Part shown: positions 37,560 to 38,230 of the stretch, piece after piece
Position numbering within the stretch: position 1 is the first letter of the stretch
How the letters are laid out: each line of letters starts with the position of its first letter
DNA from: a virus
Direction: 5' to 3' (one strand)
DNA length: 39,616 bases
IMG/VR virus record: IMGVR_UViG_3300033553_000140
Location: 1 to 39,616 of that record
Translations under genes and position numbers: made by a program
The notes under the pieces: model-generated
The model's input: the letters and a program-made list of their open reading frames with translations, nothing else
Told to the model about the DNA's origin: nothing
Database searches by the model: none

Positions 37560-37928
37560 ATGTCACAGGAAAAAATCGAAACTATTAAATTTAACGATGT
37601 TGAATACATAAGAAAAGATTCAATGAAACAAGATGTAGAGATCATGAAAAACATTGTCATGATCCGTACTTATTCAGCAGGGGTTCATTTCGGGGAACTT
37701 GTTAAAAGAGAAGGTAAAGAAGTTCACTTGAAAAATGCACATAGAGTTTTTTATTGGGTAAATGCTTGTTCATTATCTCAACTAGCAATGCAAGGGAGTC
37801 AGAATAAAAATGCCGATAATAAGATATCAATGGCTGTACCAGAGATTATTCTTACAGAGGTCATTGAAATTATTCCAATGACAAAAGAGGCATACATAAA
37901 CCTTACGGCTACTTTATGGGTGAAGTAA
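37560..37928 (+). CDS. DUF6948-like protein
   Basis: This 122-residue protein has the pattern KFNDVEYIRKDS, then MIRTYSAGVHFGELVKREGK, then NAHRVFYWVNACSLSQLAMQ, then PEIILTEVIEIIPMTKEA. This set (YSAGVHxG, a Lys/Arg-'NA.R', an Asn-containing helix, 'EIILTE.IEI') is recognised from DUF6948 proteins common in phages and prophages, whose function is unknown. TAGGAG precedes the start. Its last 13 bases overlap the start of the hexanucleotide-repeat gene. Confidence 0.7.
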   Translation: MSQEKIETIKFNDVEYIRKDSMKQDVEIMKNIVMIRTYSAGVHFGELVKREGKEVHLKNAHRVFYWVNACSLSQLAMQGSQNKNADNKISMAVPEIILTEVIEIIPMTKEAYINLTATLWVK

Positions 37929-38230
37929 TTAAAGATTTTTCTGGAGATGGATCTGGATATGGATCTGGATCTGGATCTGGATCTGGATATAGATCTGGAG
38001 ATGGAGATGGATCTGGATATGGAGATGGAGATGGATCTGGATATGGAGATGGATCTGGATCTGGATCTGGATCTGGATCTGGATATAGATCTGGAGATGG
38101 AGATGGATCTGGATATGGAGATGGATCTGGATCTGGATCTGGATATAGATCTGGAGATGGATATGGATCTGGAGATGGATATGGATATGGATCTGGATAT
38201 GGAGATGGATCTGGATATGGAGGAAGCTAA
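37916..38230 (+). CDS. Gly-Ser/Gly-Tyr/Gly-Asp repeat protein (hexanucleotide repeat gene)
   Basis: This 104-residue protein has a short start (MGEVIKDFS) followed by 46 dipeptide units (19 GS, 12 GY, 12 GD, 3 RS) and GGS at the end. Every unit is one of four hexamers, ggatct, ggatat, ggagat or agatct, linked by single-base changes. Units 5-14 recur as units 21-30. Start overlap with the DUF6948 gene and lack of a clear Shine-Dalgarno suggest translational coupling. Low-complexity G[SYD] proteins of this kind are seen in other phages without known function. A flexible, acidic, possibly phase-separating chain is one inference. Confidence 0.6.
   Translation: MGEVIKDFSGDGSGYGSGSGSGSGYRSGDGDGSGYGDGDGSGYGDGSGSGSGSGSGYRSGDGDGSGYGDGSGSGSGYRSGDGYGSGDGYGYGSGYGDGSGYGGS
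37943..38218 (+). repeat. Hexanucleotide tandem repeat, 46 units
   Basis: This is 276 bp of uninterrupted 6-bp units of four types. A higher-order period of 96 bp (16 units) is visible: units 5-14 (37967-38026) equal units 21-30 (38063-38122). The whole tract reads open in two forward frames. It contains 22 GATC sites, far more than any other stretch of this genome. Confidence 0.95.

What the first reader, a model, noticed from the sequence alone, without database searches (positions are those of the whole stretch)
37916..38230. A gene built almost wholly of 46 hexanucleotide units
The product is Gly-X with X = Ser, Tyr or Asp and occasional Arg-Ser. Only four hexamers are used, each one base from another, and a 96-bp segment is duplicated. 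Such tracts expand and contract by slippage in multiples of 6, so length could vary without loss of frame. It directly follows a DUF6948-like gene. I believe this pairing recurs in other phages, which would make it a functional pair of unknown role (for example a disordered partner or condensate-forming protein).
Basis: partly seen in the sequence, partly recalled or inferred. Interest (0 to 1): 0.75.

Follow-up and report, generated by a model that had tools for sequence, protein, structure and literature searches.

The report
Hypervariable glycine-repeat partner of a phage protein
Hundreds of bacterial viruses carry the same two-gene pair, a small protein predicted to have the fold of RNA-binding Sm/Hfq proteins followed by a fast-changing chain of alternating glycine and serine, tyrosine or aspartate, and this apparently undescribed pairing offers a testable case of a disordered 'tail' made as a separate protein.

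Summary
In detail: 37916-38230 is an intact 104-codon ORF with 46 consecutive hexamers of four kinds, encoding Gly-Ser/Tyr/Asp, overlapping by 13 nt a true DUF6948 gene (PF22253, E 7e-27). The suspected pairing is close to obligate. Of 80 viral loci found with DUF6948 alone, 79 have such a tract within 500 nt (controls 6/138); of 120 found with the repeat pattern alone, 93 have DUF6948 (93 of about 99 with enough upstream DNA). The tract is hypervariable: two Pectobacterium phages are identical for 1.75 kb and 4.1 kb on either side of it but differ by 18 nt and about 12 unit edits inside. Length changes are multiples of 6 nt in 33 of 34 comparisons, frame kept. New here: DUF6948 is predicted to have an Sm/LSm-like fold, and neighbours are recombination and replication genes (Erf, RecT, primase, exonuclease). 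Best explanation: an Sm-like nucleic-acid-binding protein whose acidic, aromatic, disordered tail is supplied in trans by a translationally coupled, rapidly shuffling repeat gene, much as the tails of Hfq and SSB tune binding or condense. Pairing, variability and coupling geometry are shown; nucleic-acid binding, physical interaction and condensation are inferred. No description was found in the searchable literature.

The parts
37560..37928 (+). DUF6948 gene (122 aa); predicted Sm/LSm-like small beta barrel, residues 28-110
   Evidence: Pfam PF22253 E 7e-27; AlphaFold2 mean pLDDT 89.6, pTM 0.75; listed PDB matches are Sm/LSm proteins or spliceosome/snRNP chains
37916..38230 (+). Gly-X repeat gene (104 aa), the separately encoded tail protein
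   Evidence: ORF; same kind of gene follows DUF6948 in 79/80 viral loci
37916..37928 (+). 13-nt overlap of the repeat gene's start with the DUF6948 stop (presumed translational coupling)
   Evidence: Same 13-nt overlap in 96 of 176 complete pairs; 169 of 176 start between -40 and +10 nt of the stop
37946..38221 (+). Array of 46 hexanucleotide units (TCTGGA 22, GATGGA 12, TATGGA 9, TATAGA 3)
37960..38055 (+). First copy of a 96-nt tandem duplication inside the array
   Evidence: 91/96 identical to 38056-38151, exact core 70 nt
38056..38151 (+). Second copy of the 96-nt tandem duplication

Best explanation
The two genes form one phage module. DUF6948 is a small Sm/LSm-like (Hfq-superfamily-like) beta-barrel protein that most likely binds nucleic acid during early replication and recombination. 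The downstream gene makes its intrinsically disordered tail as a separate, translationally coupled protein: a flexible chain with glycine at every second residue, aromatic stickers (Tyr), polar spacers (Ser) and distributed negative charge (Asp). The tail probably acts as a multivalent partner that tunes or clears nucleic acid from the barrel, or concentrates it (with phage ssDNA-annealing proteins or SSB) into an assembly, as the acidic C-terminal tails of Hfq and the Gly-rich linker of SSB do in cis. Because composition matters rather than order, the DNA is free to expand, contract and shuffle in 6-nt steps by slippage or unequal recombination. Shown: the pair, the overlap geometry, the restricted residue grammar, the hypervariability, the gene context. 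Predicted: the fold. Inferred: nucleic-acid binding, translational coupling, physical interaction of the two proteins, tuning or condensation.
For: Near-obligate pairing found in both directions, in phages and in contigs binned to many bacterial and two archaeal lineages. Conserved 13-nt overlap, and one natural DUF6948-GX fusion, L014, which argues that the two act together. The Sm/LSm fold is predicted with high confidence and all listed PDB matches are Sm/LSm proteins or spliceosome/snRNP chains (Foldseek E 0.011-0.074; VIA Z up to 7.2, rmsd 1.9, 57 aligned). X residues are S 37%, Y 30%, D 24% over 6,676 slots in 207 tracts; tract net charge is negative in 180/185 (median -7) while DUF6948 is net positive in 132/185 (median +2). 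Families most often matched within 2.5 kb are Erf/RecT/Bet annealing proteins, primases, exonucleases, methylases; those over 6 kb away are mainly terminase, capsid and portal. In phage Ymer the pair follows exonuclease VIII, Erf and SSB on the same strand. Order is scrambled but grammar kept. Precedents: Hfq acidic tail (PMC5606850; PMC6561178), Gly-rich repeats in Acinetobacter Hfq (PMC11617691), SSB linker condensation (PMC12143593).
Against: No sequence-level support for Sm membership: no significant PDB hit, and a profile comparison with an archaeal Sm protein does not beat shuffles convincingly (8 of 150 reach it). Z under 8 can reflect only a common small-barrel arrangement. Charge of DUF6948 and charge or length of its tract do not covary (rho 0.04 and -0.02). 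Wobble bases of the tract are constrained beyond the protein sequence (GGY 94-97% against 51-62% background; Ser AGY 0.5-2.6% against 35%), which a pure protein explanation does not predict. Some relatives carry folded domains of unknown role after the tract.
Confidence: 0.42

Rival explanations
1. Anti-host or anti-defence effector: the Gly-X protein is a multivalent decoy or inhibitor of a host protein, DUF6948 its carrier or chaperone, and variation in the tract tracks host variants.
For: Early-region location among small genes; extreme variability between phages with identical flanks; extra C-terminal domains in some members.
Against: The grammar is the same across very different hosts, and order is close to shuffled even between near-identical phages, which fits composition-based function better than a specific interface; no PADLOC match.
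Confidence: 0.17
2. Bifunctional or RNA-level element: the GGY-NN-Y hexamer RNA is itself bound by DUF6948, analogous to the GGY/NN repeat guide RNAs (vrRNA) of VIPR systems.
For: Both wobble positions are held to pyrimidine well above background; hypervariable dinucleotides alternate with GGY; Sm-like proteins bind RNA; VIPR is a precedent for phage repeat RNAs of this look (PMC13142463).
Against: Period is 6, not 5; three dinucleotides make up about 92% of units, so little targeting information; the tract is translated through into in-frame domains in 43 proteins and has a conserved overlapping start; the window's own tract uses GGA/AGA throughout, so GGY is not required.
Confidence: 0.1
3. 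Structural or adhesive silk-like protein (virion, capsid or cell-surface material).
For: Alternating Gly-X with Ser and Tyr resembles silk-type repeats (general knowledge); codon choice differs strongly from background and could reflect high expression.
Against: Neighbours are replication and recombination genes, not structural ones; in Pectobacterium phages the pair is on the strand opposite the adjacent tail genes.
Confidence: 0.08
4. Tolerated satellite DNA: a hexamer expansion hitch-hiking at the 3' end of DUF6948 with no function.
For: Order of units is nearly random and each tract is largely homogenised at DNA level (median share of the commonest Gly codon 1.0).
Against: 79/80 retention, intact frame, conserved overlap, X restricted to S/Y/D although transition neighbours (His, Cys, Asn, Phe, Pro) are one step away and rare, and domains fused after the tract.
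Confidence: 0.04

Closest known systems
Hfq with its disordered acidic C-terminal tail (PMC5606850; Gly-rich GGFGGQ repeats in Acinetobacter Hfq, PMC11617691)
   Same: Sm-like core (predicted here) plus a disordered Gly-rich or acidic tail
   Different: Tail is a separate gene here (one fusion found, L014), strictly Gly-X, hypervariable in unit order; ring formation and RNA binding of DUF6948 untested; no detectable sequence homology
Bacterial SSB with Gly-rich disordered linker that drives condensation (PMC12143593)
   Same: Nucleic-acid module plus Gly-rich linker with aromatic residues; here the pair is encoded beside ssDNA annealing proteins and, in some phages, SSB
   Different: Predicted Sm-like rather than OB fold; tail in trans; no conserved C-terminal tip seen
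VIPR systems, GGY/NN tandem-repeat vrRNAs (PMC13142463)
   Same: Phage-encoded, conserved GGY alternating with hypervariable dinucleotides, one small protein
   Different: VIPR repeats are pentanucleotides in a non-coding RNA with a RAMP protein; here hexanucleotides are a translated gene with three main dinucleotides and a predicted Sm-like partner
Pfam DUF6948 (PF22253) and DUF7666 (PF24703)
   Same: The upstream gene is a DUF6948 member; domain A after some tracts resembles DUF7666 weakly
   Different: No function in the Pfam one-line description; no paper in the searched library names either
Low-complexity Tyr/Gly/Ser condensate proteins such as FUS (general knowledge)
   Same: Tyr stickers with Gly/Ser spacers
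   Different: Acidic, strictly alternating, no attached RNA-binding domain on the same chain in most members

Membership tests
Pfam DUF6948 (PF22253) | Profile score above the curated cut-off | tested here: met
   93.8 bits against 27
Sm/LSm/Hfq superfamily (DUF6948) | Five-stranded Sm small-barrel fold | tested here: met
   Predicted structure only: pLDDT 89.6; the listed matches are Sm/LSm proteins or spliceosome/snRNP chains in Foldseek and VIA-align (Z 7.2, rmsd 1.9, 57 aligned). Z under 8, so a prediction, not proof
Sm/LSm/Hfq superfamily (DUF6948) | Sm1/Sm2 sequence motifs or significant sequence homology | tested here: inconclusive
   No PDB sequence hit; archaeal Sm aligns in the Sm1 register but 8/150 shuffles score as high
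Sm/LSm/Hfq superfamily (DUF6948) | Ring oligomer that binds RNA | not testable with these tools
   Only monomer prediction available
Hfq-type protein with C-terminal tail | Tail on the same polypeptide | tested here: not met
   Separate overlapping gene in the window; one fusion among relatives, L014
VIPR | Pentanucleotide YNNGG repeats, 9-16 units | tested here: not met
   Tract period is 6; no run of 5 or more YNNGG in the window on either strand
VIPR | Repeat RNA is non-coding with freely variable NN | tested here: not met
   Translated into downstream domains in relatives; TC/TA/GA account for about 92%
VIPR | Vipr protein with RAMP (RRM) fold | tested here: inconclusive
   DUF6948 matched Sm folds; RRM did not appear, but an unlisted fold is not excluded
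Condensate-forming low-complexity protein | Phase separation or reversible assembly | not testable with these tools
   Composition only
Diversity-generating retroelement target | Reverse transcriptase and template repeat nearby | not tested
   Homogenised units and 6-nt length steps already point to repeat slippage

The most novel reading that the evidence does not exclude
The repeat is read at both levels: besides encoding the tail, the GGY-NN-Y hexamer RNA is a ligand of the Sm-like DUF6948, for example one hexamer per ring turn, so that phages carry a fast-evolving repeat RNA-protein module that converged on the repeat logic of VIPR vrRNAs without a RAMP protein.
Probability: 0.08. Interest if true: 0.95.

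Novelty: new variant of a known kind. Interest (0 to 1): 0.74.

Why it matters
A widespread two-gene phage module (IMG/VR hit limits were reached twice: 580 confirmed relatives in 600 stretches, and 120 pattern stretches) appears to be undescribed. It also gives DUF6948 a testable fold and context, and accounts for many phage contigs breaking at this point (16 of 80 end just after DUF6948, 2 just before it).

Tried and rejected
Function of the Gly-X protein by family search: PHROGs, NCBIfam and PADLOC give nothing; the sub-threshold Pfam TrAA12 hit (20.3 bits, cut-off 30.9) was taken as a low-complexity match. A docking motif in the N-terminal leader (Met-Glu-x-Ile/Leu/Val): rejected, because these residues are largely dictated by the overlapping Trp-Lys-x-stop end of DUF6948 (reasoning on the two frames). 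Charge or length covariation between the partners: none. Domain A (13 members): weak DUF7666 resemblance only, 5 of 13 members, best E 0.001. Domain B (33 hits): confident model (pLDDT 95.4) without a convincing PDB match; hints of dsRBD/uS5 at Z 3.4-5.0 and profile E 0.02 are leads only. Single-protein search of viral contigs with DUF6948 found nothing, presumably because the peptide patterns were too strict; the alignment search solved this. DNA similarity search with the tract found nothing, as low-complexity filtering would cause. VIPR was considered seriously and not accepted. Literature: no paper in the library with DUF6948 or DUF7666; the repeat strings occurred only in two unrelated papers.

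Full report
OBSERVATION. The window is one IMG/VR virus record of 39,616 bases. ORF 37916-38230 is intact and 46 of its hexamers follow one another without interruption (37946-38221). Lag-6 identity is 0.82 against 0.29 in shuffles. A 96-nt segment is tandemly duplicated at 91/96 identity. The gene before it is DUF6948, and the two ORFs overlap by 13 nt.

PAIRING. tblastn of the DUF6948 protein hits 15 of 50,697 phage records. In eight first-checked loci from Iodobacter, Chlorobiaceae, Pectobacterium, Dickeya, Vibrio and faecal phages a Gly-X ORF follows directly; in L006 the Gly-X stretch is short and carries a C-terminal domain. Two blind tests were then made. A DNA pattern for alternating Gly and Asp/Tyr/Ser codons, which knows nothing of DUF6948, fetched 120 IMG/VR stretches: 93 have DUF6948; 98 of the 102 DUF6948-bearing loci of the whole set have it within about 200 nt upstream. 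Of the 27 without, 21 have under 120 nt upstream of the tract; the remaining six (L019, L031, L039, L048, L081, L109) include different proteins such as Pro- or Gly-rich linkers. One 'missing' case, L061, lies on the same contig as L249, where DUF6948 is at the other end: the contig was cut inside the tract. Conversely an alignment search with DUF6948, blind to the repeat, kept 80 viral loci: all 80 have a run of at least five Gly-X dipeptides downstream (4 of 132 control windows do), and 79 pass a strict test (6 of 138 controls). In prokaryotic genome contigs 50 of 63 have it, 7 are cut off within 90 nt, and several of the other six show short or degraded tracts. Contamination of metagenome bins by phage contigs is possible, so the host range shown by these contigs is tentative.

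OVERLAP. In 96 of 176 complete pairs the ATG lies at exactly the same place as in the window, 13 nt of overlap; 169 of 176 lie between -40 and +10 nt. Translational coupling is inferred from this. One ORF, in L014, fuses DUF6948 and the tract.

HYPERVARIABILITY. Eight Pectobacterium/Dickeya phages have the pair; Gly-X gene lengths are 258, 222, 222, 204, 270, 162, 222 and 252 nt, all differing by multiples of 6, with the first residues and the frame preserved. Ymer and Amona are 91-96% identical genome-wide, but share an exact 4,097-nt block on one side of the tract and 1,753 nt on the other; between them the tract differs by 18 nt and 12 unit edits, against 16.8 for shuffled order. Between other pairs the order is near the shuffled expectation. 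Each tract uses mostly a single Gly codon, yet different phages use different ones, as expected if units are homogenised by slippage or unequal exchange. One length difference of 3 nt was seen (L228/L229). Contigs end just downstream of DUF6948 in 16 of 80 cases and just upstream in 2 (p 0.001), as repeats or mixed populations would cause.

GRAMMAR. Over 207 tracts, 6,676 X slots are Ser 37.0, Tyr 30.5, Asp 24.0, Asn 2.3, Phe 2.0, all others under 1 per cent each. Non-Gly departures at Gly slots are 140 against 309 synonymous ones, where about 2:1 the other way would be expected without constraint (my estimate from the code). Equal neighbours are rarer than in shuffles (0.262 against 0.320). 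Wobble positions are pyrimidine far above background: GGY 94-97% against 51-62%; Ser TCY 94-98% of TCN against 45-51%; AGY 0.5-2.6% against 35%. The window is an exception, all GGA/AGA. Avoidance of Shine-Dalgarno-like or G-quadruplex motifs, tRNA supply, or an RNA role could cause this; it is left unexplained.

ARCHITECTURES. Most Gly-X proteins end with the tract or within a few residues of it; in some a folded domain follows in frame (29 of 155 proteins analysed have tails over 60 aa). Two domain types recur: A (13 proteins, weakly DUF7666-like) and B (33 hits in 32 loci, no confident fold match), 43 of these 46 hits preceded by a Gly-X tract in the same frame. L020 has five and L057 at least four tandem Gly-X genes with constant ends and variable middles. 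These indicate that the tract is translated and retained as protein.

FOLD AND CONTEXT. An alignment of 84 DUF6948 sequences gave a confident AlphaFold2 model; all listed PDB matches in two aligners are Sm/LSm proteins or spliceosome/snRNP chains, covering residues 28-110. The viral library returns other DUF6948 proteins and, lower down, a phage protein named Sm-like. Sequence evidence for Sm is not significant. The families most often matched by genes within 2.5 kb are Erf, RecT, Bet, primase, exonuclease, Gam, RusA and methyltransferase families; by genes over 6 kb away, terminase, head, portal and baseplate families. In Ymer the same-strand order is exonuclease VIII, Erf, SSB, regulator, then (after an opposite tail-fibre gene) DUF6948 and Gly-X.

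MECHANISM. The simplest reading is a nucleic-acid-binding small barrel with a tail in trans. Hfq's acidic tail competes with RNA for the basic rim (PMC5606850) and Gly-rich repeat number matters in Acinetobacter Hfq (PMC11617691); the SSB linker's glycine-rich and aromatic features set condensation (PMC12143593). A tail whose effect depends on composition would tolerate shuffling, as seen. Steps shown, predicted and inferred are marked in the best explanation. The RNA-level alternative was examined because of VIPR (PMC13142463), whose vrRNAs also alternate GGY with variable dinucleotides; period, coding status and the three-dinucleotide alphabet do not fit, and the window lacks GGY.

VERDICT. 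Real, recurrent and close to obligate; the function is unproven.

Noticed in passing
Gly-X tracts of 176-199 loci; window 37946-38221 as exception: Gly codons in the tracts are GGC/GGT and Ser codons TCC/TCT far beyond background, even in AT-rich phages; the window, L203 and L254 use GGA instead. Cause unknown.
   Followed up: partly
L020:1660-2968 and L057:11140-12399: Tandem arrays of five and at least four Gly-X genes with constant N- and C-terminal ends and variable repeat middles, downstream of one DUF6948 gene.
   Followed up: no
L036, L042, L090, L049, L165 and others (domain B); L085, L097, L106 and others (domain A): Two domains fused after Gly-X tracts: B has a confident predicted model without convincing PDB match, A is weakly DUF7666-like.
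   Followed up: partly
L121:6916-7647: A Gly-X/domain B gene that appears frameshifted, a rare broken copy or assembly error.
   Followed up: no
L061 and L249 (contig IMGVR_UViG_3300000574_000007): The contig begins and ends inside Gly-X sequence, so the assembly was cut at the tract; 16 of 80 contigs end there.
   Followed up: partly
L001:1161-1406 (Iodobacter phage PhiPLPE): The Gly-X ORF is not annotated in the GenBank record, so annotation-based surveys may miss this family.
   Followed up: no
L130 vs L133 (Pectobacterium phages Ymer and Koroua): All 23 differences in 1.7 kb upstream of the tract fall inside DUF6948 (7 amino-acid changes), suggesting cassette exchange or diversifying change of the pair.
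   Followed up: no
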